Shown here piece after piece: positions 28,735 to 45,649 of a stretch of 64,000 nucleotides of DNA (position 1 is the stretch's first letter; every line of letters starts with the position of its first letter). The notes under the pieces were generated by a model. That model searched no databases. It saw only the letters and a program-made list of their open reading frames with translations, and was not told where the DNA came from. The DNA lies in NCBI RefSeq assembly GCF_010993745.1, contig NZ_WOTN01000001.1:375235-439234 (forward strand). The letters run 5' to 3'. Made by a program: the position numbers and the translations under genes. Source of the stretch: Fodinicola acaciae. GTDB lineage: Bacteria; Actinomycetota; Actinomycetes; Mycobacteriales; HKI-0501.

Positions 28735-29973
28735 TCAGTCGAGCAGGACCAGACGTGTCCACTGTGGTCGGTCGTACGCGCAAATGGTCGCGAGCACGGT
28801 CGCGATGCCGGCCGTGCCGCACAACCAGCCGGGGTTGTCCACGGCGTCACCGCCGACCTCGTGATCGCGGAATCCGAGCAAAGAATTCGGGTCATAATGC
28901 CGAAGGAGCCGGCGGACCAGGTCGGCGGTCGCTGTCACGAGTGCCGGTTGTCCGGTGTCGCTGGCGAAAACGAAGGTGGTCATGAGCAGGCCGGCCAGCC
29001 CGTGACAGAACGTCGGCGAGGTCAGTTGGTCGACGTTGGCGAGCGCGGTGGACAGGCTTTTCATGGCGAGATCGCGATAGTCGGCGCGGTCGAGGACCGT
29101 GCCGGCGAGCCACATCGCGCGTGCGACACCGGGATCGCCATAGCACCAGCCGGGACGGTTGAGCGTGCCGGGTCCGGCCAGGTCGCCGTTTTCGTCGAGC
29201 AGAACAAAACGTGGCCAGCTGGGGCCATGCGTGGTTTCCACGATCTGGCGCGCCAGCCAGTCGGTGGCGTACCCGAGCGCCTCGAGAGCCGCGTCCGACA
29301 GTGGTGCTGAGATAGCCAGCGCCGCGACGAGGCCGGGCAGACCGTGTGAGAGCCCGCAGTCGAGATAGCCGTGCGGTGCCAGCACTCGTTGTTGTTCTTC
29401 CAGACGGGACGCGGGGATCCGGAGCTGCCGCAGCTTTGCCGCGGGCGCAAGGAGTTCGGTGGCTCGTACGATGATGTCGTCACGCGCTCTCTCGGAATCG
29501 TGGAGCGTGGCGATCCAGCCAGCCAGGCCGTTGACGAGGTCGAAGTCGGCTCCCGCCGCGGCGCGAGCCAGGATGGCAGGCGGCAGGATCGTGTCGAGTT
29601 GTTGGCGCAGCCGACGATAATTGCCTTGCCCGGCCGACAATGCCGCGACCGCTGAGAAACCGGACGCACCGCCGAAGAGCGTGACGTCGTGCAATGACAG
29701 CGACGATGCGGCGGTCCGCAGCGCGCGGTGGCCTTTCTCAGCGTACGCGGGCACGTTGAACGCGTCGGCGACGGTGAAGAACGCCAATGCCTGTCCGGTG
29801 GAGCCTTGAGCAAGTGAGAGATCGCGCCAGGCGAATTCCCTGTGGAACCGAGTTTGCCGTGCGCACGCGCCGATGCCGGCGGCCAGGACCGTGTCGTCGG
29901 CGAGCCGGTCGGTGAGATCGCGCGCGACGGTCTCGACCTCTGCCGCGAGTTTCGCGTCCAGGAGTTGATTCAT
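28735..29973 (-). CDS. LanC-like lanthipeptide cyclase (locus 1, second cyclase)
   Basis: Zinc enzyme that adds cysteine thiols to dehydrated Ser/Thr to form thioether rings. It has 412 residues and an alpha/alpha toroid. Zinc ligands are Cys277 (GWCYGD), Cys323 and His324 (FCHGLAG); the catalytic-region His210 is in GLSHGLPG. It overlaps the preceding lanC by 4 nt (ATGA) and is the last gene of the lanA1-lanB1-lanC-lanC run. The two cyclases of the locus differ enough to suggest separate roles. All metal ligands are kept, so it need not be a decayed copy. Confidence 0.88.
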   Translation of the reverse strand: MNQLLDAKLAAEVETVARDLTDRLADDTVLAAGIGACARQTRFHREFAWRDLSLAQGSTGQALAFFTVADAFNVPAYAEKGHRALRTAASSLSLHDVTLFGGASGFSAVAALSAGQGNYRRLRQQLDTILPPAILARAAAGADFDLVNGLAGWIATLHDSERARDDIIVRATELLAPAAKLRQLRIPASRLEEQQRVLAPHGYLDCGLSHGLPGLVAALAISAPLSDAALEALGYATDWLARQIVETTHGPSWPRFVLLDENGDLAGPGTLNRPGWCYGDPGVARAMWLAGTVLDRADYRDLAMKSLSTALANVDQLTSPTFCHGLAGLLMTTFVFASDTGQPALVTATADLVRRLLRHYDPNSLLGFRDHEVGGDAVDNPGWLCGTAGIATVLATICAYDRPQWTRLVLLD

Positions 29974-31214
29974 CGCAACAGCAGTGCCTTGTCCCAGCCG
30001 GTACGCGGCGGCTCGCCGGTGGCGTACGCGAGCAGTGCGGCGGCCGTGCCGGCGGCGCCGCCGAGCAGGCCTGGAATGTCGCGCGGCGCACGTCCGTGTG
30101 TGCCGTCATAGCGAAAGCCGAAACTTTCTTGGTCGTCATAGGATTCCACAATGCGGCTGGCCAGCTCGTCGGCGACCGGACCATTGTCGACCAGCCGTAC
30201 GATGTGCAGCAGGCCGGCCCAGCCGTGGCACAGTCCGGTGCCGTCGACCGGCGCCAGGTCCGCGGAGTTGGCACACAGCTTGTCCAAAGCGGTCGCCGCG
30301 AGCGCCGACCATTCCGGCCGATCGACGGCAGCGGCGGCGAGGTGGAGAGCTGCCGCGATGCCGGGTGTCCCGTAACACCAGGCGGCCCGGTCCGGTGAAT
30401 CGGCCGGTCCGCCGGCGATTTCCTCCTCAAGGCGTACGGCCATCGGCCAGTTTCCGGTCGCGGATCGGCCATACCAGCCGGCCAGCCAGGTCGCGATCGT
30501 GTCGATCGCCTCGACGAGGCCGGCTTCGTCGACGCCGTTGTCGGCGGCGATGGCCAGGCAGGCCAACGATCCGGCGATGCCGTGCGCGAGACCCAGATCG
30601 AGGCCGGTGGTCACCTCATCGCGGTCGTTGCGGCTCAGGGTGAGTGCATTGCCAGGCAGAAGCCAGCCGGGGACCGCGCAACCGTCGATCTTTTTTGGCT
30701 GAGCATGGCGGATAAGTGCGCGCACGTGAGCGCGTACGCCCGGATCGGCGCGATGCAACAGGTAGCGCGTCACGCCAGCGGTGCCTTTGATGACATCGAA
30801 ATCCGTCGTGTCCGCAGTGTTGATGCGACCGGATCGCACGGCACGGTCGCAGTAGGCGATCATGGCGGCACAGTCGGCGTTGGATCTGGAGACAGCGGTC
30901 GCCGCGAAACCTATGCCGGCCATGCCGATGTGCAGGCTCGGCAGCCGCGCGAACGGACCGAGGTGTGTGGCCGCCGCGGCGAGATGAGCGCGCGCGGCCG
31001 GCAGCCATCGAGGATCGACATGAGCCATCTCGGCAAGGAAAACCGCGATGCCGGGATGGCCGTCGCTCAGCCAGGCCGCCCGCCACTCGCTCGGCCTGGC
31101 CGCCGCGCACGCCGACCACGAGGCCGTGGCGACGGCGGCGACGATGGCCGGATCGCTGAGCCGCTCGGCAACCGCGCAGGCGATGTCGTACGCGGCCGCC
31201 CGGACGTCGGTCAT
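29970..31214 (-). CDS. LanC-like lanthipeptide cyclase (locus 1, first cyclase)
   Basis: Cyclase of 414 residues. Zinc ligands Cys280 (AWCYGTPG), Cys329 and His330 (LCHGWAG), with His211 in LAHGIAG, match active LanC proteins. It overlaps the lanB1 stop by 4 nt and the next lanC start by 4 nt, so the three enzymes are translationally coupled. Sequence details (CYGTPG, CHGWAG, GFRYD) are closer to the locus 2 cyclase than to its tandem partner. Confidence 0.9.
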   Translation of the reverse strand: MTDVRAAAYDIACAVAERLSDPAIVAAVATASWSACAAARPSEWRAAWLSDGHPGIAVFLAEMAHVDPRWLPAARAHLAAAATHLGPFARLPSLHIGMAGIGFAATAVSRSNADCAAMIAYCDRAVRSGRINTADTTDFDVIKGTAGVTRYLLHRADPGVRAHVRALIRHAQPKKIDGCAVPGWLLPGNALTLSRNDRDEVTTGLDLGLAHGIAGSLACLAIAADNGVDEAGLVEAIDTIATWLAGWYGRSATGNWPMAVRLEEEIAGGPADSPDRAAWCYGTPGIAAALHLAAAAVDRPEWSALAATALDKLCANSADLAPVDGTGLCHGWAGLLHIVRLVDNGPVADELASRIVESYDDQESFGFRYDGTHGRAPRDIPGLLGGAAGTAAALLAYATGEPPRTGWDKALLLR

Positions 31215-34105
31215 TGCCTCGCGCGTTCGCGGTTGACCAGGCTCTGCGCCAGGTTCCGCGCGGCGGCATAGCTGGCGCTTTCCGAGTGAGGGTCGATGCC
31301 GATCGCGCGATTATGGTGCATGTGCAGCAATCCGCCGAATGCGTCTGGGTGGTCGTCCGTGTCGACGAGTGCCGCGTACGCGCACAAAGCCTCGCCACGA
31401 CGAGCCAGAGCCGGCGGCTGAGTGTCGGCCATCGCCGGCAGCTTGCTCCGAAACCTGCGGAAATCCGGCGTCTCCGGTTCGCGTTTGAACATGGACAACA
31501 ACGCGTCGCGCCAGGCATCTCCGCGCAGTGCTTGCATCATGTACACAACGTCCAACGCGGCAACCAGTGTCGGCGGCAGGTCGTGACGCGTGGTCAGCTG
31601 CGTCAGGACGAGTTCGCTGTCCGCATGGAAAACGCGTTCCGCGGCCGTGAGTGCGGCGCCGTCACCGTAGCGTGCGACTTCTGGTGCGTATTCCTCGACA
31701 ACGACACGGCTGGCCAGGTCGTCGTCGCGAAGTTGGCCGCACATCGCGAAAACCGCGGCCTCGACGGCCGTGCGTACGCGCGGATCGCTGGCGTGGAAGC
31801 GCAATCGCAGATGATCGTCCGGATCTCGATAACGGATGAAAAACCAGCGATCGACACCGTCAGGCAGGTCGGCGACCAACTGACGAACCGGTCCGGTCAG
31901 GAGACTGTTGTGACGGCTCGCCGCGGCGTAGATTTTCACATACAGCCAAGGGCCGCCGAGGCGATGGCAGGCTGTCGACGCTCGCGTACGTGGCACTGCC
32001 GGCTGTCGCCGTGGTTCGCCCTCGCGCGGCACCTGGAGCACGATTTCGCTGGCATGACCCGACAACCATCCGGTGGCTTCCGGCGTCGTGTGCGGCGACT
32101 CGGTGAAGACACACGACAGCCCGCGCGCCAGCTCGGCCTGGACGAGACGGCGATGCAGACCGCTGGCGAGGTCGACTTCGACGCGGTTGTCGGCAAAACT
32201 CAGCTGCAGGACGTCCGGCAGGTCGAAACGGCGTTGCCAGCCGGTCATTTTCCGGTCCCAGTCAGCGGGGGAGAGGGTCCTGTCGGCCAGTTCCTCCGGC
32301 GGGACCCATCGTGCCGCGGTCAACACCGTACGCCCATAGGTGACGCGTGGCAGGAACGGCAACGCCGACAGGCGTCCCCAATGCCAGTCGTACGCGCAGC
32401 GCTCTTCTTCGCGACCCAGCTCTCGCAGCAGCCGTCCGACGTCGTTGGTGCCAAGGGTCGGGTTGAGCATCGAGTACGTGACCGGACGAATCTCGCGGCC
32501 GTCGGACAGACCGACCAGGCCGAGGCGGTCTTCGTTGGCGTACAAGGCCAAGTTGGCAGGCGAGACGATGCCGGAGGCGTCCGGATCGTGGAACGTGCCG
32601 ATCGGGATCAGCCGCGGCAGTAGTCGCGGCTGCATCGCCACATTGGTGAGTTTCGGTTTCGTAACGACGAAATCCAGCTGCGCCGCATGCTCGTCGCCGG
32701 CGGTGAACGCGTCGTCGAACAGGTGCAGGAGACGACCGAGGCTCGCGCCGCGGATGCCGCTGGCGATCGACGGCACGAGCATCAGCCGAAACCGTCCGGC
32801 GTCGACGGCTGGCATCGAGTCGGCCATCAGATGGAACGCCATCTCGCGGGCAGGCCGGCCGGAGGGCACTGGGCTTTCCCATGAGGCAAGACGTTGGGGC
32901 GTCAATGCGATCTCGCGCGAGCCGTCCAGCGTGGCCTCCTGCACCCACCTGGCGAGGTGCGGTGTGCGGGGATCGTGCGGAGGTGATGGTGTCTTGGCGG
33001 CGGGGTCGCGATAGATCGGTGGCGGTCCGATGCCACGCTCGGTGTCCAGCGCGTCCAAGAGCGGTACGAGCGTGTTGCGTCCGTATTTTTCCATCAGCCG
33101 CACGCGAAACTCGGCCAGGTGTGCGGGCTCGGTCAGCGGCGGCGAGGCTCTGTCCAATGCGGACACCGCCTCGTACGCCTCGGCCAGCACGATCTGCGGG
33201 ATCCTGATCCGCGCGTCGAAACGCAGGTCGACGCGTATGGCCTGGCCGTCACCCGTGGCGACCTCGTTGGCCTTTCGGTAAGCCGCGACGGCGTCTTCGG
33301 GCGAAGCATTCTGATAGGCGGCGACAGCCGTCGCAAAATCGGTGACGCGGCGATCGTTGATGCGCGCGGCTATGTGCGCGAGAGGATCGGCGCCGACCAA
33401 CGGCGGTCGCAGGTCCGTGACGAGGAAGCCGGCATTGACGAGCTGGTCGACCATCGCGTAGATGCGCGTGTTTTCGTACGCCGGATAGGAATCGGTCAAC
33501 CGCGCGACGAGATCCGCGACCCGCACCGGACGCCGCGCCAGCGCGAGAACGTCCCGCAGCGCCGACGTCAACCGGACCGAGACCTCACGGGTGATCCCGT
33601 CCGGATCTTCCTGCGGTGGATATGGATTGACCAGGCGATTTCCGCGGGTCAGACACAGATTGTTGGTGACCACACGCAGATTCGCGAGCACCGCCCGGTC
33701 GCGTTGACATTTCTGGATGACTGTTTCCAGCCAGGCCATGTCCGGGCCGGCGACCCGCCGGTGATCGTCCCCGACCTTGGCCTCGCCGGTCGCGGCCACC
33801 TCGGCGAACGTGACTCCGGCGAGCGTACCGAACGGTGTCGACCTGGTGGCCATCCGCAGGACGTACTTCGTCATCGACAGCAGCGCCCGATGCAGCTTCT
33901 TGGCGCTGACCGGCGCGCCGCTGTCGATTTTGTCGAGCAACTGTCCCAATGCCGGACTGGCGACCTCCACGGCCTCGCGGATCACCGGATCCGCCGACCA
34001 TTTCCCGAGCAGGTCGCGAGCGAGCTGGGGATCGTCGTCGACACGCGTCTCGACCGCCCGGTGAACGCCGAGTCGTGCGAGGCGTACGAAGACAAGCTCC
34101 GGCAC
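31211..34105 (-). CDS. LanB lanthipeptide dehydratase (locus 1)
   Basis: Class I dehydratase of 964 residues that glutamylates Ser/Thr of the precursor from glutamyl-tRNA and eliminates glutamate to give dehydroamino acids. The N-terminal glutamylation domain shows RSTPFGTLAGV (about residue 88). The C-terminal elimination (SpaB_C/thiopeptide-type) domain begins near residue 725 with PWLYVKIYAA and DRWFFIRYRD. The length is normal for a full, single-chain LanB. GTG 34105 lies 3 nt after the lanA1 stop, so precursor and dehydratase are co-translated. Confidence 0.92.
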   Translation of the reverse strand: MPELVFVRLARLGVHRAVETRVDDDPQLARDLLGKWSADPVIREAVEVASPALGQLLDKIDSGAPVSAKKLHRALLSMTKYVLRMATRSTPFGTLAGVTFAEVAATGEAKVGDDHRRVAGPDMAWLETVIQKCQRDRAVLANLRVVTNNLCLTRGNRLVNPYPPQEDPDGITREVSVRLTSALRDVLALARRPVRVADLVARLTDSYPAYENTRIYAMVDQLVNAGFLVTDLRPPLVGADPLAHIAARINDRRVTDFATAVAAYQNASPEDAVAAYRKANEVATGDGQAIRVDLRFDARIRIPQIVLAEAYEAVSALDRASPPLTEPAHLAEFRVRLMEKYGRNTLVPLLDALDTERGIGPPPIYRDPAAKTPSPPHDPRTPHLARWVQEATLDGSREIALTPQRLASWESPVPSGRPAREMAFHLMADSMPAVDAGRFRLMLVPSIASGIRGASLGRLLHLFDDAFTAGDEHAAQLDFVVTKPKLTNVAMQPRLLPRLIPIGTFHDPDASGIVSPANLALYANEDRLGLVGLSDGREIRPVTYSMLNPTLGTNDVGRLLRELGREEERCAYDWHWGRLSALPFLPRVTYGRTVLTAARWVPPEELADRTLSPADWDRKMTGWQRRFDLPDVLQLSFADNRVEVDLASGLHRRLVQAELARGLSCVFTESPHTTPEATGWLSGHASEIVLQVPREGEPRRQPAVPRTRASTACHRLGGPWLYVKIYAAASRHNSLLTGPVRQLVADLPDGVDRWFFIRYRDPDDHLRLRFHASDPRVRTAVEAAVFAMCGQLRDDDLASRVVVEEYAPEVARYGDGAALTAAERVFHADSELVLTQLTTRHDLPPTLVAALDVVYMMQALRGDAWRDALLSMFKREPETPDFRRFRSKLPAMADTQPPALARRGEALCAYAALVDTDDHPDAFGGLLHMHHNRAIGIDPHSESASYAAARNLAQSLVNRERARQ

Positions 34106-34108
34106 GTG

Positions 34109-34303
34109 TCAGCAGGCGCAGGGGTGGCCAGTCACACCGCCGCAGGTTTCCCCGCAGGTCCCCCACGAGATCAGCGTCGGCATGCAACCGGACGCCGTTT
34201 GGCCGGCCATGATGTCGTCCCGAACCACGCCGTCCGGCGCCAGCTCGACAATAGTCTCCAGATCCAGGTCGAAAACGTCGTCCACCACACTCGCCGCGGT
34301 CAC
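34109..34303 (-). CDS. Class I lanthipeptide precursor LanA1
   Basis: 64-residue precursor. GTG 34303 has GAGAGGAG 6-7 nt upstream. The leader contains FDLDLE (residues 11-16), matching the F-N/D-L-D box by which class I leaders bind LanB and LanC. The core, from about residue 36, holds five Cys (40, 50, 54, 62, 64) and seven Ser/Thr (36, 38, 43, 46, 49, 53, 58), with WGTCGETCGG in the middle and HPCAC at the end. Up to five thioether rings are possible. No leader protease gene lies beside it and no cleavage motif is obvious. The core matches no lanthipeptide I recognise. First gene of a four-gene run. Confidence 0.88.
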   Translation of the reverse strand: MTAASVVDDVFDLDLETIVELAPDGVVRDDIMAGQTASGCMPTLISWGTCGETCGGVTGHPCAC

Positions 34304-37853: not shown

Positions 37854-38378
37854 TCAGTAACAGGAGGCGGCCGAGCTGGCCTGGTTGTCGTCGGCCGGCG
37901 CGACGTTGATGAAGTGGTCCGCGCCGGTCGGCGGCATCGTACGCGGAGTGCCCTGCCAGTGCGCGTCCGGCATCCAGCACCACTGGATCGGCGACGCGTT
38001 GGTGAACGAGGACATGTCGTCGTTGAGGTCGTTGTTGCTGCATCCGGTGTCTGGCGGACACGACACGTTGGCCAGGTCCTCCAGCTGGGTCGCCGGCACC
38101 TGGTACTGGAAGGCGAGATACGCGCCGCGAACAGCGTTTGCGTTGGGGTTCTGGAACAGGCAGATGTAGTTGATCGTACAGAAAGTCGCCTGCGTACGCG
38201 CGTCACCCTGGTAGATGCCCTGGTAGACGCCCGGTTTCACCTGCTTGCCGGCGGTGATCGCGGTCAACGGCGCGGTCCTGGTGCCGGCGGTGGTGGCGGC
38301 GCTGGCCGGCATCGCCGCCACCGTCATGGTCAGGCCGACGATGGCGGCCAAGACCACGAGCAGAGGTGTTCGCTTCAC
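37854..38378 (-). CDS. Small secreted cysteine-containing protein, I36-like
   Basis: 174-residue exported protein; AGGAGG precedes GTG 38378. A signal peptide ends near MPASAA. The mature part has six cysteines and the segment FCTINYICLFQNPNA, recalling the CLF/CLY-rich start of peptidase-inhibitor family I36 and beta/gamma-crystallin-like domains. The assignment is tentative. It is a single gene with its own terminator and an upstream GAGCGCTAAA motif shared with lanA1, another small secreted protein and a secreted protease. Confidence 0.6.
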   Translation of the reverse strand: MKRTPLLVVLAAIVGLTMTVAAMPASAATTAGTRTAPLTAITAGKQVKPGVYQGIYQGDARTQATFCTINYICLFQNPNANAVRGAYLAFQYQVPATQLEDLANVSCPPDTGCSNNDLNDDMSSFTNASPIQWCWMPDAHWQGTPRTMPPTGADHFINVAPADDNQASSAASCY

Positions 38379-38523: not shown

Positions 38524-38552
38524 TTGAAGGCTTTGCACGCGACCCCTACAGT
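38524..38552 (+). promoter_or_regulatory. Sigma-70-type promoter of lanA2
   Basis: TTGAAG (38524-38529) and TACAGT (38547-38552) are separated by 17 bp, 33 nt before the lanA2 start. It is the only good promoter seen for that gene. Confidence 0.55.
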
Positions 38553-38585
38553 GACGAATACCGACGATCACCGAAAGGGGCTCTG

Positions 38586-38840
38586 ATGGGTGAATTCGAC
38601 CTCGATCCGCGGGTCGAGGCAGCGGTCGGGTTCGGCTGGGCCGCGCATTTCGGCTCCGCCGATGCCGCCGGTGCGCGGGGCCTGGCTCTGCTCGACCACA
38701 CCGACTCCTGCGACACCTGCGGAAATCCTTGTACGGCGACCTGCAACACCAACACCGGCACCTGCCTGACCAACTGCGACACGTGTCCCGGTGCGACGGT
38801 TTGCGGCACGTGCGCACCACCTGGCGCGGGTGGCTGCTAA
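38586..38840 (+). CDS. Cysteine-rich class I lanthipeptide precursor LanA2 (candidate)
   Basis: 84-residue peptide; AAAGGGG lies 5 nt before ATG 38586. The leader starts with EFDLDPRVE (residues 3-11), carrying the FDLD box seen in LanA1. The core from about residue 38 holds ten Cys (42, 45, 49, 53, 60, 64, 67, 73, 76, 84) and twelve Ser/Thr, mostly Thr placed one to five residues before a Cys; the last residue is Cys. Up to ten (methyl)lanthionine rings would be possible, far more than in usual class I products. It faces lanC3-lanB2 across a shared terminator. An alternative reading is a metallothionein-like protein, but the FDLD box and neighbours favour a RiPP precursor. Confidence 0.78.
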   Translation: MGEFDLDPRVEAAVGFGWAAHFGSADAAGARGLALLDHTDSCDTCGNPCTATCNTNTGTCLTNCDTCPGATVCGTCAPPGAGGC

Positions 38841-38870
38841 GCCTCGATACGTGGATCGAGGCTAAGTTTT
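38840..38870. terminator. Terminator between lanA2 and lanC3
   Basis: Stem AGCCTCGAT (38840-38848) / ATCGAGGCT (38855-38863) with a 6-nt loop, then AAGTTTT on the plus strand. It serves lanA2 and, read the other way, the convergent lanC3. Confidence 0.75.
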
Positions 38871-38874
38871 CGGC

Positions 38875-40125
38875 TCAGGTCAACATAAGCGCGGCATCCC
38901 AGCCGGTCGCGGACGGGCGACCGGTCGCGTGCTCGTGCAGGGCCAGCGCGATTCCGGCCGCACCTTCCAGGAAACCGGCACGGTCGGTCCCGGCAGGGGC
39001 GGCCGGATGCGTGTAGCGAAAGCCAAACGCGTGGTCGTCGCGAAATCCGGACCGGATGGTCGCCGCGATACGGTCGGCGGCGCATTGGTACGTGGCCGCA
39101 TTGGTGTCCCAGGCCATCCGGTTGGCGATCTGCAGAAGGCCGGACCAGCCGTGGCACAGCGCGAAATCGCCGATGCCGGCACCGGCGACGGTGAGCGCGC
39201 TCTGCATGGCCGACTCGCCAAGCTCAGCCAGTTTTGGCCTTTCGAGGGCCTTTCCGGCCAGATGGAGCGCCCGTCCGACGCCGCCGCAGCCGTAACACCA
39301 CACCTCCCGCGACCTGTTGACCGGTGGTCCCTCGCCGGCGCGGATCCAGCTCGGCCAGAACGGGCCACGGTCGTCGTCCTGTTGCCATTTCGCAAGCAGG
39401 TCAACGATGTGTCCCATCGCCTCCTGCTGCCGGTCGACTTTTACACCTCGTCGCCAGCAGATCGCCAGCAGCGCGAGAGGACCGGCAATGCCGTGCGCCA
39501 GACCGAGATTGAGGTGTCCAGGCGGGCCTTCCTGGCCGATGTAGGCGTACGTGTCGACCCACCACGCTTTATCGCCGCCACACGCGGCCGCGACGAAAAG
39601 CGAGATGACATCCGTAACCGCGTCGCGAATGTTGTCGTCTTGCGTGGCCTCGTATCGGGCCAACAGGAGCCGTGCGACACCGGAGGCTCCGGAGATGACG
39701 TCGTACGCGTCCCAGCTCCCGAGCGGCTGACCGGCCGCGAGACGCTCGCGGTCATGACGTACGCGTGCGCGTAACTGCGACACGATCGCGTGGTCCAGCT
39801 CAGTCAGAAGCGTGTCGTAGCCACCGAAAACCGTGCTGGCCGCGTGCGCCGCGAAAGCGAGTGAGGCGATGCCGTTGTAGAGACCCAGGGCCGGTGGTGC
39901 GTCCGAGGCGAGCGCTGCGCTGAGATATTCGTGTGTCAGGTCGTGCTGACCAAGCTCGGCATGGAGCAGCGCCAGTGACGGAAAACCGTCGGACAATGCG
40001 GCCGACCGCCACGGCGAGACGCGTCGCCCAGGCAACACCATCGCGTTTCGCGACGCCGAGGCGATCGAGCGTACGCGGTCGGGATCGGCGAGGCTGGCAG
40101 CGATCGACTCGACGATGGAGGTCAT
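38875..40125 (-). CDS. LanC-like lanthipeptide cyclase (locus 2)
   Basis: Zinc cyclase of 416 residues: Cys277 (VWCYGCGG), Cys324 and His325 (LCHGWSG), and His211 in LAHGIAGPLA. An extra cysteine sits three residues after the first zinc ligand. It overlaps lanB2 by 4 nt (ATGA). It is the only cyclase of locus 2 and would have to close every ring of the ten-cysteine precursor, unless the locus 1 cyclases help. Confidence 0.9.
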   Translation of the reverse strand: MTSIVESIAASLADPDRVRSIASASRNAMVLPGRRVSPWRSAALSDGFPSLALLHAELGQHDLTHEYLSAALASDAPPALGLYNGIASLAFAAHAASTVFGGYDTLLTELDHAIVSQLRARVRHDRERLAAGQPLGSWDAYDVISGASGVARLLLARYEATQDDNIRDAVTDVISLFVAAACGGDKAWWVDTYAYIGQEGPPGHLNLGLAHGIAGPLALLAICWRRGVKVDRQQEAMGHIVDLLAKWQQDDDRGPFWPSWIRAGEGPPVNRSREVWCYGCGGVGRALHLAGKALERPKLAELGESAMQSALTVAGAGIGDFALCHGWSGLLQIANRMAWDTNAATYQCAADRIAATIRSGFRDDHAFGFRYTHPAAPAGTDRAGFLEGAAGIALALHEHATGRPSATGWDAALMLT

Positions 40126-43100
40126 CGATTCCTTCCGGATTTCCGCAAATGACGATCACGGTCGGCCTGCGCCTGCAATGTGCCGCGGGCGACCGCGTAT
40201 CCGTCCTGCTCTCTGCCGCGGTCGATGCCGACCAGGCGATTGTGGTGGAGATGCAGGATGCTGGAGATGGGACCGGCGAGGTCAGTGTCCTGTGCACGCA
40301 GCAGTTGTCCGTAGTCGGCCGCCGCGGAGGCTCTCTGTGCCCAGCTTTCCAGCAGTTGTGGACCGCCGGGCATCGCGGCGAGTTCTTTCCAGCCACCGAG
40401 CGGATCCAGCAGACGCATCGCGGCGCGGCGATGCTCCTGGAACGTCGCGTGGCGGTCTCCTTTGGGATAGGCGGAGAGCAGGAACTCCCACCAACCGTCG
40501 CCGTGGATCCACCGCACGAGATCGATGTGGTTGGCGGCGAGCAGTATCTCCACCGGCAGATCGAGTTGTCCCTGCTCGCGCAGGCGCAGCTGTGTCAGTA
40601 CGCTTTCGCTGTCCGCGCGAAACAAGTGCTCCGCGGCCTCGATGGCGGAGGAGCCGCCGTAACGCTGGTATTCCGGCCGGTAGGTGTCCAGGGTCAGGTT
40701 GCCGACGATGCCGGCCTCGGTGAGATCCGCGCTCCACGCAGCCAACATCGGCAGCACCGTGCCGTTGAGGTCGGCCGGATCGCCGTGGAACCGTATCCGC
40801 AGCTGTGCGCCATCCTCGCGATAGCGAAGGAAAAACCACCGATCGACGCCGGTCAGGCGACCGACGAGCGCCGGCAGATGGCGGGACAGCAACTCGGCGT
40901 GCCGGCCCGGATCGGCGAAAACCTTGGCGTAGAGCCATTCACTGCCTGGCGGATACGACCTCGCGGCCGTCGCATGCCGGCTGAGAGACTGTTGGGGAAC
41001 TGAGGTGCGTGAGAGTCGAGATCCAAACGGCGGCGTTTGGGCTCGGCTATCGCGTGCCTCAGTTCCCCAACAGTCTCTAGGTGCGCCGACGGGACGACGG
41101 TCGGCCACGCGCCGCGGCACCAGCGGGATGACGATTTCGTTGGCATGGCCGCCGATCCAGCCGGTGCCGATTTCGCCGCCGGCCGGCTCCTCCTGCAGTG
41201 CGGTCGCCGGACGCTTGCGCAGGTCATCGTGCAGCATCCGCAGCTGAGCCGGCTCGGTCAGGTCGACGAGCACGCGATTGTCGGAAGATACGGCGTAAAC
41301 CCGGTCCGGAACGTCCCATTCCTTGCGCCACCGTTCGAAAGCCGGTCGCCACCGCGTCCAGCTCCGCTCTGTCTTCAGTCGTGGATCGAGCTGCCACCGT
41401 GCGGACGACAACACCGTGCGGCCGTGGCGTACGCGCGGCAGATAGGGCAGACGGTCGGCGGCACCCCAGGTCCACAACGGCCACGGTGGCGTGTCGGCCT
41501 GACCGACCTCCAGCAGGAACCGTACGGCGTTCGGCATGGACAGCAACGGATTGAGCGCGTGGAACGGCTGTGGCGAGATGCGTCGTCCGTCCCTTGTGGA
41601 CACCAGGAAGAACCGCCGGTGGTCGGCGCCGACGAGCACTTCGTCCAGGCTCAGTGCGTTGGCTCGATCGGCGAAAACGCCGACTTCCAGGCTCTGCTCG
41701 GTCAGCCGCGGCACCTGGCTGACGTTGAACGTACGCGACTGCGTGAGCGGACCGCACAGCTGCGTCGGCGTGGCGTCACCGGCCAGCTCGGTGGCCAGCT
41801 GGGACATCGGCGTGGCGAGCTCCGGAAGCAGATGCAGGAACCGGCCGAACATCGCTCCGGGCCGGTTGAAGTTGGCCGATCCCGCGACCAGCCGGAAATC
41901 GCCGCCGGCGAGGGAATCCGTCGAGTCGGCCAGGACCTGGACGCATGCCTCCAGATATGGCGGTGGTTCGTCCGCGCGGTCCGTGCGGCCGAGCCGCTCG
42001 ACCAGCTCCTCATCGAGTACGATCTCGCGGCCGCTTCCCCAGGCCAGCTGGAAAAGCAGCTCGTCGCGCTGTGCCGACCCGGTCTCCAACTCGACAGCGC
42101 GCCGGCTGCTCGGTGGCAGCAGATATCCAGGGGGCGCGCCAAGTCCGGTGGTCGGGTTGAGGACTTCCTTCACCGGCACCAAAACGTTGGTGCCGTAACG
42201 CTCGATGAACTCGGCACGGAAACCGGCGAGCGGATCCGCCGGTGCCAGTTGCGCCGGCGTGAGCCGCCACGCGACCGCGGCCGCTTCGACGAGCTCGTCG
42301 GCGACGGCGGCCGGTATGACCACGTCGGCGTCCATGCCGAGGTCGACCTGGATCATCCGGTCGGCGGTTTTCCAGCGGCGCAACGCCTCCGTGCTCCGCG
42401 ACCAGGCAGCGGCACCAGCGCCGACCGACGTGCGAGCGTATTCTTCCAACGCCCGCTTGACACTTGCCATCTCCGGCAGCCGTTGCGCGACGTGGCTCAG
42501 CGGATCGGTGCAGGTGGCCGACGGCCGCAGATCGGTCAGCAGGAACTCGCGCCGTACCAGCTCGGTCACCATCGTGGTGACCTCGGTTTCGGTGGCTGCC
42601 GGAAAATCCGCGTGCAGCCGCTTGACCAGCTCCGGATAGCCGACCGGTGAGCTGGCCGCCGCCATCGCCGTACGCACCGCGTTCGTGAGCCTGACGGTGT
42701 GCTCGCGATCGTCCGGCCCGCGTCGCTCGATCTCGTCGCGTACCATCGGCAGGACCAGCCGGTCGCCGCGCCCGAAGCACTGGTCATTGGCCACCAGGCG
42801 AAGCTTCTCCAGCACCGTCGGATCGGTTTCCATCGGCCGTACGACGTCGACCAGCCAACCCATGTCGACGCGGACCTGACGGCGATGCGCCGTGCCGACA
42901 CGCGTGTCGGTGGCATCGCCGAAACGCAGCCGGCAGACACCGGCCAACAGTCCAAAAGGAGTCGGCCGGTGCGACATCCTTGACACGTAACGGATCGCGG
43001 CGAGGACCGCTCGGCGCAAACGTTTCGGCTCGACGCTCACGCCGTCGGCGACCCGCGCCAATGTGTGGCCAAGCGATGCACTGGAGACCGTCAACGCCTC

Positions 43101-43280
43101 ACGCACGTATGCGTCCGCGGCCAGCTTCCGCAGAAAATCCACCATCGCGGTCGTGTCGTCGACATCGTCGAGCGGCGGCACTGAGGTGCATTGCGGCAGC
43201 GCGGAAAGGCGAGCGATTCCCACCTCCAGTGCGGTGAACACTGCGATTCCTTCCGATCGGCCGGCGCCAGCTGTCTCCAT
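40122..43280 (-). CDS. LanB lanthipeptide dehydratase (locus 2) with an in-frame palindromic insert
   Basis: Full-length class I dehydratase of 1052 residues. The glutamylation domain contains HRPTPFGLLAGV (about residue 100); the elimination domain starts near residue 776 with SEWLYAKVFADPG and DRWFFLRYRED. Between the two domains, residues 735-766 are encoded by a 93-bp palindromic repeat copy (40985-41077) that keeps the frame. LanB1 has no equivalent. The linker position makes it plausible that the enzyme still folds. ATG 43280 is chosen; ATG 43295 is possible and would overlap the divergent exporter start. Confidence 0.88.
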   Translation of the reverse strand: METAGAGRSEGIAVFTALEVGIARLSALPQCTSVPPLDDVDDTTAMVDFLRKLAADAYVREALTVSSASLGHTLARVADGVSVEPKRLRRAVLAAIRYVSRMSHRPTPFGLLAGVCRLRFGDATDTRVGTAHRRQVRVDMGWLVDVVRPMETDPTVLEKLRLVANDQCFGRGDRLVLPMVRDEIERRGPDDREHTVRLTNAVRTAMAAASSPVGYPELVKRLHADFPAATETEVTTMVTELVRREFLLTDLRPSATCTDPLSHVAQRLPEMASVKRALEEYARTSVGAGAAAWSRSTEALRRWKTADRMIQVDLGMDADVVIPAAVADELVEAAAVAWRLTPAQLAPADPLAGFRAEFIERYGTNVLVPVKEVLNPTTGLGAPPGYLLPPSSRRAVELETGSAQRDELLFQLAWGSGREIVLDEELVERLGRTDRADEPPPYLEACVQVLADSTDSLAGGDFRLVAGSANFNRPGAMFGRFLHLLPELATPMSQLATELAGDATPTQLCGPLTQSRTFNVSQVPRLTEQSLEVGVFADRANALSLDEVLVGADHRRFFLVSTRDGRRISPQPFHALNPLLSMPNAVRFLLEVGQADTPPWPLWTWGAADRLPYLPRVRHGRTVLSSARWQLDPRLKTERSWTRWRPAFERWRKEWDVPDRVYAVSSDNRVLVDLTEPAQLRMLHDDLRKRPATALQEEPAGGEIGTGWIGGHANEIVIPLVPRRVADRRPVGAPRDCWGTEARDSRAQTPPFGSRLSRTSVPQQSLSRHATAARSYPPGSEWLYAKVFADPGRHAELLSRHLPALVGRLTGVDRWFFLRYREDGAQLRIRFHGDPADLNGTVLPMLAAWSADLTEAGIVGNLTLDTYRPEYQRYGGSSAIEAAEHLFRADSESVLTQLRLREQGQLDLPVEILLAANHIDLVRWIHGDGWWEFLLSAYPKGDRHATFQEHRRAAMRLLDPLGGWKELAAMPGGPQLLESWAQRASAAADYGQLLRAQDTDLAGPISSILHLHHNRLVGIDRGREQDGYAVARGTLQAQADRDRHLRKSGRNR
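40985..41077. repeat. MITE-like palindrome, family A copy 1, inside lanB2
   Basis: Arms AGAGACTGTTGGGGAACTGA (from 40984) and its exact complement ending at 41078. The inner palindrome CCAAACGGCGGCGTTTGG is flanked by the shared core sequences GAGAGTCGAGATC and CTCGGCTATCGCG. 93 bp plus a 3-bp duplication equals 32 codons. The ends resemble IS5-family termini. No transposase is present. Confidence 0.8.
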
Positions 43281-43293
43281 TAGATTAATTACC
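43281..43293. promoter_or_regulatory. Divergent AT-rich promoter between lanB2 and the exporter
   Basis: TAGATTAATTACC separates the two start codons and is the only AT-rich patch nearby. On the plus strand TAGATT ends 7 nt before ATG 43294, the spacing of a -10 box for a leaderless mRNA. Neither gene has a Shine-Dalgarno sequence. Confidence 0.45.
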
Positions 43294-45198
43294 ATGTCCA
43301 CGTCACCCGCGCAGGATCCGCTTTTCGGCTCCGGTTTGCGCCTTTCGCAGGTGCGCAACTATGATCGCGCGCCGGTCGGAATGCTGCGTACGCTTCGCGC
43401 ACTGCCGCGGTTGGTCGGCATCACCGCGCGGCTCGGTTGGCGACAGGACCGCGCGGCGATGTGCGCGATGGTCGTGAGTCAGTTGCTGACCGGTGTGACT
43501 ACGGCGGGGACTTACCTGACCACACAACGTTTCCTGTCCGGCGTGTTCGCGGCTGGAGCGCTAAACGGCAAGCTCGCCGCGCTGGCGCCGATCGCGATGA
43601 TCATGGTGGCGCTGCTTGCCACCCGCGGCTTGGCCGACGCGGTGTCCACCGCGACATCCGGACGGCTGGGACCGCGGATTGCCAGAGCCGCCAACCTCGA
43701 GTTGCTCGAACGCGCCGTACGGGTCGAGCTGGCGGTGATCGAGGACGCGGCGTTCCACCAGCTGCTGGAGTCGGCACGCCGCGGCGCGGATGCCGTACGC
43801 CGGTTGACAGATCGCGTCGTCGGCATGTCCACGGCCGCGGTTTCGGTGTGCGGCATGGTGGTGGCGCTGGCGATTCTCGACGCACGACTGCTGCCGCTGT
43901 TGTTGCTGACGCTCGTGCCGCGGGGCTGGGGCGCGGCGAGGATGGCCGGCGTACGGTATGCGTCGGCGAAACGGTGGATGGATCTCACCCGCCAGGTCGA
44001 CCAGCTCGGCATGCTGATGACGGCGCGCCGGACGGCGGAGGAAATCCGCGCACATCGTGCCGGTGGGTTTCTGTTGCGTGAGTTTCGGCGGCTCTCGGCG
44101 CATTCCGACGGAGAGCAGGCCAGGTTGGCGCGTCAGGAGGCCGTGACGCGTTTGCTGGTCGGCGCTGCGAGCGGTGCGGCCGCCGTCCTGGTTTACGGCG
44201 TGCTGGTCCTCCTCACGGTCACTGGCGGCATGTCGTTGGCGGTCGCTGGGGCTGCCGCGCTGGCGATCAGGTCGAGCGCCTTGAGCCTGGCAACGCTCGT
44301 CACGCAGTTTCAGCAGGTGTACGAGGACGGCCTGCTGGTGTTGGACTGGCGTGCTGCTTGTGACAGCGCGGAATTGTCGGCGATCCGCGACGGCGGCAGC
44401 CCTCCGGCTGCCGATCCGCGGCGAATTTCGGCTTGCCGGTTGACCTTCCGCTATCCAGGCACGCAGCGCGCCGCGGTGGACGGCGTGGACCTGGAACTGC
44501 GGCGCGGTGAGATCGTCGCGCTGGTCGGCGAAAACGGCTCAGGAAAGTCCACTGTGGCCAAGTTGTTGACCGGCCTCTATCTGCCGCAGGGCGGAGCCGT
44601 CACGTGGGACGGTGTGAGCACACGCGACCTCGACCGGCACGCGCTGTTCGACCACGTCGCGCTGCTGTCGCAGTCGTTTCCGCGTTGGCCTTTCACCGCG
44701 AGGATGAACGTGGCGATCGGACGATCCGCCGAGGCTGTTGACGAGGCGAGGCTGGTTTCGGCGGCCGGCCGCACCGGTGCGGACACCGTCATCGACGGCC
44801 TGGATGGTGGATGGGACACGTTGCTGGCGCCGGAGTTCTTTGGTGGCACCGATCTTTCCGGCGGCCAGTGGCAGCGGCTCGGCCTGGCCAGGTCCTGGTA
44901 TCGCGACGCGCGGCTGCTCGTCGTCGACGAACCGACCTCCGCTTTGGACCCGGCCGCTGAGATCGAGGTCTTCGACCGGATCGGCGCGATGGCCAGGGAC
45001 GGCCGTACGATTCTGCTGATCACGCACCGTCTCGCGTCTGTCGCGTCCGCCGATCGCATCTACGTTCTCGACCACGGCCGGATCGTGGAGCACGGCAGTC
45101 ACGCTCAGCTCATCCGCGCTGACGGAAAATACGCCGCGCTCTATCGATTGCAGGCCGCGCAGTTCCAATCCGACTCGGCATGCGACGGCACAGGTTGA
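43294..45198 (+). CDS. ABC exporter with fused permease and ATPase (lanthipeptide export)
   Basis: Membrane exporter half-transporter of 634 residues: about six transmembrane segments (residues 50-330), then an ATPase with Walker A GENGSGKST, signature LSGGQWQRLGLARS, Walker B LLVVDEPTSALD and the switch histidine in LLITHRLA. It has no N-terminal C39 peptidase domain, so it would export but not cleave the precursor. It is divergent from lanB2 with start codons 14 bp apart, so it most likely exports the locus 2 product. The stop codon lies inside a GAGCGCTAAA motif belonging to the next gene. Confidence 0.87.
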   Translation: MSTSPAQDPLFGSGLRLSQVRNYDRAPVGMLRTLRALPRLVGITARLGWRQDRAAMCAMVVSQLLTGVTTAGTYLTTQRFLSGVFAAGALNGKLAALAPIAMIMVALLATRGLADAVSTATSGRLGPRIARAANLELLERAVRVELAVIEDAAFHQLLESARRGADAVRRLTDRVVGMSTAAVSVCGMVVALAILDARLLPLLLLTLVPRGWGAARMAGVRYASAKRWMDLTRQVDQLGMLMTARRTAEEIRAHRAGGFLLREFRRLSAHSDGEQARLARQEAVTRLLVGAASGAAAVLVYGVLVLLTVTGGMSLAVAGAAALAIRSSALSLATLVTQFQQVYEDGLLVLDWRAACDSAELSAIRDGGSPPAADPRRISACRLTFRYPGTQRAAVDGVDLELRRGEIVALVGENGSGKSTVAKLLTGLYLPQGGAVTWDGVSTRDLDRHALFDHVALLSQSFPRWPFTARMNVAIGRSAEAVDEARLVSAAGRTGADTVIDGLDGGWDTLLAPEFFGGTDLSGGQWQRLGLARSWYRDARLLVVDEPTSALDPAAEIEVFDRIGAMARDGRTILLITHRLASVASADRIYVLDHGRIVEHGSHAQLIRADGKYAALYRLQAAQFQSDSACDGTG

Positions 45199-45238: not shown

Positions 45239-45649
45239 ATGTCCGTGAAACGGAGCTTGCTGGTCGTGGCCGTCGTTTCGGCCGCATTGCTGACGATCCC
45301 ACAAACCGCGGTGGCGCGTCCGGCGGCGGCGCCATGCGCCGCCCAGACCAACTGCTGGTGGTCCCTCGCCGGCTTCACCGGTCAGTCGGCGACCTGGCAG
45401 GCGCCACGACCTCCGGGTTCGTGCGCGTCCGCGCCGAATGCCGTCGTGCGGTCATATGCTTTCTACGGTGGCCAAGAAGGCTATTTCTATCGCAGCAACA
45501 ACTGCACCGGCGAGTCGCGTGCCGTGTTGGCGAACAGTGAGTCCGCCGATCTCGGCTTCGACGCGTACAGCTTCAAGTCGGCCTGCGTCTCCTGCAAGGT
45601 CAACGCCGGAACACTCGGCGGCCGGCAAACCACGTCTCATCGACCGTGA
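45239..45649 (+). CDS. Small secreted protein, I36/crystallin-like
   Basis: 136-residue exported protein; GAAGGG precedes ATG 45239. The signal peptide ends near TAVARP. Mature segments SYAFYGGQEGYFYRSNNCTGE and six cysteines suggest a beta/gamma-crystallin or I36 inhibitor-like fold; the resemblance is weak. It shares its upstream motif with the 37854-38378 gene. The last 50 bases overlap the convergent amidohydrolase gene. A role as inhibitor, immunity factor or scavenger of the lanthipeptide is conceivable but not shown. Confidence 0.6.
   Translation: MSVKRSLLVVAVVSAALLTIPQTAVARPAAAPCAAQTNCWWSLAGFTGQSATWQAPRPPGSCASAPNAVVRSYAFYGGQEGYFYRSNNCTGESRAVLANSESADLGFDAYSFKSACVSCKVNAGTLGGRQTTSHRP

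What the first reader, a model, noticed from the sequence alone, without database searches (positions are those of the whole stretch)
38586..38840. Candidate class I lanthipeptide precursor with ten cysteines
The sequence shows an 84-residue peptide with an FDLD box at residues 4-7, the leader element recognised by LanB/LanC in class I systems, followed by a Cys/Thr-rich core with ten Cys and twelve Ser/Thr. Known class I products have mostly three to seven rings. If all cysteines are cyclised, this would be an unusually dense polythioether. It has its own promoter, ribosome binding site and terminator, and faces lanC3-lanB2. That it is a substrate is inferred from the box and neighbourhood.
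Basis: partly seen in the sequence, partly recalled or inferred. Interest (0 to 1): 0.88.

Follow-up and report, generated by a model that had tools for sequence, protein, structure and literature searches.

The report
Ten-cysteine lanthipeptide precursor with conserved leader
This small gene very probably encodes the raw peptide for a ribosomally made, ring-bridged natural product (a class I lanthipeptide); it is the most cysteine-rich member found of a small actinomycete family and might carry up to ten sulfur bridges, though that number is unproven.

Summary
The ORF is as described: 84 aa, FDLD at residues 4-7, ten Cys, twelve core Ser/Thr. The reading as a class I lanthipeptide precursor, inferred from motif and neighbourhood, now has comparative support. 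A scan with the neighbouring LanB found six named loci with a homologous peptide beside LanB; the own genome holds a seventh. Identity to the five closest is 73-81% in the leader, 21-28% in the core. The eight LanBs paired with this leader (FxLD then GxGW) form one group among 75. A precursor profile matched 6 of 21 chosen genomes, each once, beside the LanB, and 1 of 396 phylum genomes, the own one (only 14 candidates per genome scored). LanC and exporter are conserved. Ten Cys is the most among 64 LanB-associated peptides found. A published ring rule places all ten Cys, but two relatives have more Cys than core Ser/Thr, so full cyclisation is not a family rule and disulfides remain possible. 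A new member of a known kind, with unusual ring potential.

The parts
38586..38840 (+). lanA: 84-aa class I lanthipeptide precursor
   Evidence: homologues beside LanB in L055, L056, L057, L058, L080, L111 and own paralogue at L045.
38586..38693 (+). Leader (residues 1-36; boundary inferred), FDLD at 38595-38606, conserved GFGWxAHF at residues 15-22
   Evidence: Alignment A3 of 6: 16 of the first 22 residues invariant.
38694..38837 (+). Core (residues 37-84; boundary inferred): 10 Cys, 11 Thr, 1 Ser
38573..38580 (+). Ribosome-binding site GAAAGGGG, 5 nt before the ATG
   Evidence: Read directly.
38524..38552 (+). Weak promoter-like pair TTGAAG-17-TACAGT
   Evidence: Loose pattern; below the cut-off; that pattern finds nothing in 160 nt upstream of the seven homologues.
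38837..38870 (.). Hairpin plus TTTT between the convergent genes, probable shared terminator
   Evidence: Inverted repeat I3; 48-nt stretch folds at -19.1 kcal/mol on +, -15.3 on -; not called by the scan.
38875..40125 (-). lanC3: LanC-type cyclase
   Evidence: PF05147 8.3e-54; PDB 8byk 9.3e-33 and NisC 2g02 5.2e-17 with WCYG and CHG stretches aligned.
40122..43358 (-). lanB2: full-length LanB dehydratase (ORF as listed; the true start is probably the ATG at 43295 or 43280)
   Evidence: PF04738 3.7e-176, PF14028 2.6e-47; PDB 5ehk 1.5e-112, NisB 4wd9 1.4e-31; starts read.
43063..45198 (+). lanT: ABC exporter without a recognised C39 peptidase domain (ORF as listed; true start probably near 43294)
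   Evidence: 54-60% identical ABC beside the precursor in L055, L056, L057, L058 and L080.

Best explanation
The gene encodes the precursor (LanA) of a class I lanthipeptide. LanB2 binds the N-terminal leader through its FDLD box, and perhaps the conserved GxGW part, and dehydrates core Thr/Ser (mostly Thr); LanC3 adds Cys thiols to the products to form mainly methyllanthionine rings; the neighbouring ABC transporter exports the peptide, and an unlinked protease removes the leader. Shown: the gene, its homologues, a conserved leader with variable core, co-occurrence and matching phylogeny with LanB, LanB and LanC domains that look complete. Inferred from the known class I pathway: modification, export, leader cleavage, ring number. 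I expect most Cys to end in thioether rings, with a clear chance that some stay as disulfides.
For: FDLD leader box; Walker et al. call FxLD the long-recognised class I leader motif (PMC7268733, outline and passages). Homologous precursors beside LanB in 6 named loci and at one further locus of the own genome. Identity of ours to the five closest: 73-81% in the first 26 columns, 21-28% after. The 8 LanBs with this leader type are one side of a branch, support 100, among 75 LanBs (FastTree). A family profile hits only the LanB-adjacent gene in 21 chosen genomes, 6 of 21. ABC transporter conserved in 5 of the 7 homologous loci; LanC in L055, L056, L058, L111 and L045, and its first part at the contig end of L057. 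LanB2 and LanC3 align to solved LanB and LanC enzymes. No stable fold predicted for the peptide. By the ring rule of PMC11251773 all ten Cys find a Thr/Ser at least three residues upstream; over the six closest members 44 rings are placed against a mean of 33.4 in shuffled cores.
Against: No product is known. For this core alone the ring count is not significant (13.7% of shuffles do as well), and the family test treats related sequences as independent. L056 and L057 have one Cys more than core Ser/Thr. The six named homologues were found through LanB, so their LanB neighbourhood is by design; offset this only partly, since they scored only some candidates per genome. In the relatives with an ABC gene the precursor sits beside it; in ours it sits at the other end of the cassette. 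The own paralogue L045 and L111 have no such ABC gene in the stretch held. No leader protease or immunity gene was recognised among the window proteins I scanned, which are not all of them.
Confidence: 0.92

Rival explanations
1. A sub-case of the best explanation: it is a lanthipeptide precursor, but only part of the Cys are thioethers; the rest pair as disulfides, giving a mixed thioether-disulfide peptide.
For: Two relatives cannot cyclise all Cys with simple lanthionines. Roseocin alpha, a class II peptide, has four rings and a disulfide (PMC10027976, passages).
Against: This member has 12 Ser/Thr for 10 Cys and the ring rule places all ten.
Confidence: 0.5
2. It is a free-thiol, metal-binding small protein that merely lies next to lanthipeptide genes.
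For: CxxC pairs at residues 42-45, 64-67 and 73-76 (positions).
Against: The conserved half is the Cys-free leader; Cys number varies from 4 to 10 in the family; LanB phylogeny tracks the leader; no confident fold from a shallow alignment; no Pfam match up to E 0.1 and no NCBIfam match up to E 1.
Confidence: 0.03
3. It is a lanthipeptide precursor, but modified by another of the genome's LanBs (eight span the whole model), for example LanB1 about 4.5 kb away.
For: Eight full-length LanBs and 14 LanC-like domains in the genome; LanB1 has its own FDLD peptide at 34109-34285.
Against: LanB2 falls in the group of LanBs paired with this leader, LanB1 does not (LanB1 is a long branch).
Confidence: 0.04

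Closest known systems
Class I lanthipeptide precursors (nisin type)
   Same: FxLD leader box, separate full-length LanB and LanC, ABC exporter; LanB2 is closest in the PDB to 5ehk (named lantibiotic dehydratase; microbisporicin enzyme by recall), then 9g04 and NisB.
   Different: FxLD at the extreme N-terminus followed by a conserved GFGWxAHF; ten Cys; residues 39-84 hold no basic or aromatic residue; no protease or immunity gene recognised among the neighbours scanned.
Geobacillin I and elgicin
   Same: Cited as the known lanthipeptides with most bridges, seven (PMC11251773, passages; geobacillin I also PMC6165006, passages).
   Different: No sequence relation was tested; ours would have up to ten bridges.
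Supersized roseocin alpha homologue of Micromonosporaceae (predicted)
   Different: Class II (LanM), two-peptide system; not class I.
Predicted precursors of Streptosporangium carneum, Actinomadura macra, A. fibrosa, A. rudentiformis, an Actinoallomurus MAG and Bailinhaonella thermotolerans
   Same: Homologues: same leader type, LanB, LanC where the contig reaches, and the ABC gene in all but Bailinhaonella.
   Different: 8, 8, 9, 7, 6 and 4 Cys; different cores; L055, L056 and L058 carry a JmjC-type gene after lanC for which the own genome gave no match (no positive control).

Membership tests
Class I lanthipeptide biosynthetic cluster | LanB with both Pfam domains PF04738 and PF14028 close to a LanC-like gene (criterion of PMC7268733) | tested here: met
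   criterion from passages.
Class I lanthipeptide precursor | FxLD box in the leader | tested here: met
   Residues 4-7; F, L, D invariant in 8 of 8 aligned.
Class I lanthipeptide precursor | 30-120 aa ORF with Cys, near the synthetase genes | tested here: met
   84 aa, 10 Cys, 34 bp from lanC3; size range from passages.
Class I lanthipeptide precursor | Conserved leader, variable core among relatives | tested here: met
   73-81% against 21-28% identity of ours to five homologues.
Class I lanthipeptide precursor | Dehydration and thioether formation in the core | not testable with these tools
   Needs expression and mass spectrometry.
LanC cyclase | WCYG and CHG stretches as in NisC (their role as zinc ligands is recalled) | tested here: met
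   Aligned with NisC and 8byk.
Metal-binding free-thiol protein | Conserved Cys pattern and a stable fold | tested here: not met
   Cys number varies 4-10; mean pLDDT 46 with only 8 sequences.
Leader cleavage by a C39 exporter | C39 domain on the exporter | tested here: not met
   No peptidase family among the Pfam matches of the exporter up to E 0.1.

The most novel reading that the evidence does not exclude
All ten cysteines are cyclised, mostly as methyllanthionines, into two runs of interlocked rings and one lone ring, giving a lanthipeptide with more thioether bridges than the seven cited as the known maximum, and defining an exported, non-cationic polythioether family whose core expands and contracts under a fixed GxGW leader.
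Probability: 0.3. Interest if true: 0.65.

Novelty: new member of a known kind. Interest (0 to 1): 0.45.

Why it matters
If its ring potential is realised it would raise the cited ceiling on thioether bridges in a lanthipeptide and test how one LanB/LanC pair handles ten sites. The family, with one fixed leader and cores of 4 to 10 Cys, is a natural series for asking what limits ring number, and LanB2/LanC3 could be useful, core-tolerant tools. The genome itself, with eight LanBs, is a rich source of class I peptides.

Tried and rejected
Internal duplication as the source of the ten Cys: two CDTC segments (22 codons apart) suggest it, but self-alignment is not better than shuffled cores (12% of shuffles as good, 27% with Cys fixed; DNA 35%). 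Rejected as unsupported.

Conserved promoter: my loose pattern fits only the window gene, none of the seven homologues.

Weak hits of the single precursor in two order relatives, L002 and L003 (E 0.001 and 0.01, L002 with an internal stop; 3 of 61 genomes in all with the own one): not read; taken as probable chance Cys/Thr matches. The profile search included G033 (L003's genome) and reported nothing there; G013 (L002's genome) is not named in the part that was shown.

Ring overlap count as a sign of unusual topology: 7 overlaps by the rule, but shuffled cores average 9.6, so not special.

Paper searches (five): 'lanthipeptide' + 'ten cysteine' + 'lanthionine' gave 0 papers; the others gave the papers cited, of which I saw passages only (and one outline). 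The library lacks most subscription journals, so absence there is weak.

Full report
What is there. The ORF 38586-38840(+) encodes 84 residues with FDLD at 4-7, ten Cys and twelve core Ser/Thr, eleven of them Thr. It has a good ribosome site, a weak promoter-like pair below the standard cut-off, and a hairpin with TTTT between it and the convergent lanC3, which the standard terminator scan did not call. It matches no Pfam model up to E 0.1 and no NCBIfam model up to E 1, and the 8.86 Mb genome gives one match to it at E <= 0.001.

Neighbourhood. lanC3 (38875-40125, -), lanB2 (40122-43358, -) and an ABC exporter (43063-45198, +) follow; as listed the last two ORFs overlap, and their true starts probably lie within a few bases of each other near 43294. 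LanB2 has both LanB domains and is closest in the PDB to 5ehk, named lantibiotic dehydratase, then 9g04 and NisB. LanC3 matches 8byk and NisC, with the WCYG and CHG stretches aligned; that these hold the zinc ligands is recalled. No C39 peptidase domain was found on the exporter.

Own genome. It gives 11 matches to the LanB N-terminal model, 8 of which span the whole model, and 14 LanC-like matches over the Pfam cut-off. The six full-length LanB loci outside the window that I fetched each have a small Cys peptide with an FxLD-like box nearby (FDLD, FSLD, FTLD, FNLN or LDLD); the remaining one is LanB1 in this window, with its peptide at 34109-34285. The peptide most like ours (MDDFSLDARV...GGWQA) lies at the locus whose LanB is the closest paralogue of LanB2, 45% identical.

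Relatives. A scan of the species-genome collection with an alignment of four LanBs gave 131 relatives, of which the best 80 were kept. Beside the closest LanBs (47-56% identical in the best segment) stand homologous peptides in Streptosporangium carneum (8 Cys), Actinomadura macra (8), A. fibrosa (9), A. rudentiformis (7), an Actinoallomurus MAG (6) and Bailinhaonella thermotolerans (4). In the five closest plus ours, 16 of the first 22 residues are invariant. Identity of ours to those five is 73-81% in the first 26 columns and 21-28% after. The ABC gene is present in five of these six loci (54-60% identical; not in Bailinhaonella, nor at L045). LanC (43-49%) follows LanB in L055, L056, L058, L111 and L045; L057 holds only its first part at the contig end, and the L080 contig ends inside LanB.

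Tests of the pairing. In a tree of 75 LanBs (FastTree, a rough method; some rows are long branches) the eight LanBs with a GxGW-type leader are one side of a branch, support 100, one change against 7.7 in shuffles. A profile of six precursors was run on 21 genomes that I chose from the 80 loci: 6 of 21 matched, once each, and by coordinates each match is the LanB-adjacent gene. In 396 genomes of the phylum it matched 1, the own genome. These negatives are soft: only 150 or 14 first-look candidates per genome were scored, and the profile did not report the own paralogue at L045. The six named homologues themselves were found through LanB.

Cysteine number. Of 75 LanBs, 64 had a Cys peptide with an FxLD-like box within 4.5 kb by my filter and 11 had none; the Cys-richest such peptide per LanB had 3 Cys in 32 cases, 4 in 13, 1-2 in 5, 5-9 in 13 and 10 in one, ours. 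The filter is crude. Passages in the literature give seven bridges as the known maximum (geobacillin I, elgicin) and eight as a prediction (PMC11251773), and a predicted class II precursor with 9 Cys and 13 Ser/Thr (PMC10027976).

Rings. The rule in PMC11251773 (each Cys, from the C-terminus, takes the nearest free Ser/Thr at least three residues upstream; I left out its labionin step) places 10 of 10 Cys in ours, 7/8, 7/8, 8/9, 6/7 and 6/6 in L055, L056, L057, L058 and L080, and 4/4 in L111 and L045. For ours alone 13.7% of shuffled cores do as well; for the six closest together 44 rings stand against a mean of 33.4, reached by a fraction of 0.0001 of 20,000 shuffles, but the six are related, so this overstates the evidence. 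L056 and L057 have one Cys more than core Ser/Thr. The authors of the rule note that its power may fail for more complex structures.

Mechanism. Leader docking to LanB2, glutamylation and elimination at Thr/Ser, thiol addition by LanC3, export by the ABC protein and leader removal by an unlinked protease all come from the known class I pathway; none was tested here. Residues 39-84 hold no basic or aromatic residue and have a computed charge of about -3.7 with free thiols, so a nisin-like cationic action is not the obvious guess; the biological role is open.

Verdict. It is a new member of class I lanthipeptides, in a subfamily with a distinctive leader for which I found no description in the five paper searches made (none used the leader sequence). 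Full ten-ring cyclisation is possible and would be notable, but I give it about 0.3.

Noticed in passing
28735-34285 (-): A second class I cluster in the same window: FDLD peptide with five Cys (34109-34285), LanB1 (31211-34105) and two LanC genes (29970-31214 and 28735-29973).
   Followed up: partly
37854-38378 (-) and 45239-45649 (+): Two small proteins with peptidase inhibitor I36 domains and signal-like N-termini (by eye) flank the precursor-LanC-LanB-ABC cassette on both sides.
   Followed up: no
L055:14419-15318, L056:14392-15291, L058:9987-10889: A JmjC_2/cupin gene directly follows lanC in three relatives, a possible hydroxylase acting on the peptide; no match in the own genome (no positive control).
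   Followed up: partly
L042:6877-7101 and L043:6535-6699 (own genome): Two LanB loci of the own genome encode near-identical cores (PCSTNDGCAxSCASxCASRG).
   Followed up: no
43278-43296: The divergent lanB2 and ABC genes appear to start within a few bases of each other or to overlap, with no clear ribosome site seen for the ABC gene, hinting at leaderless transcripts.
   Followed up: no
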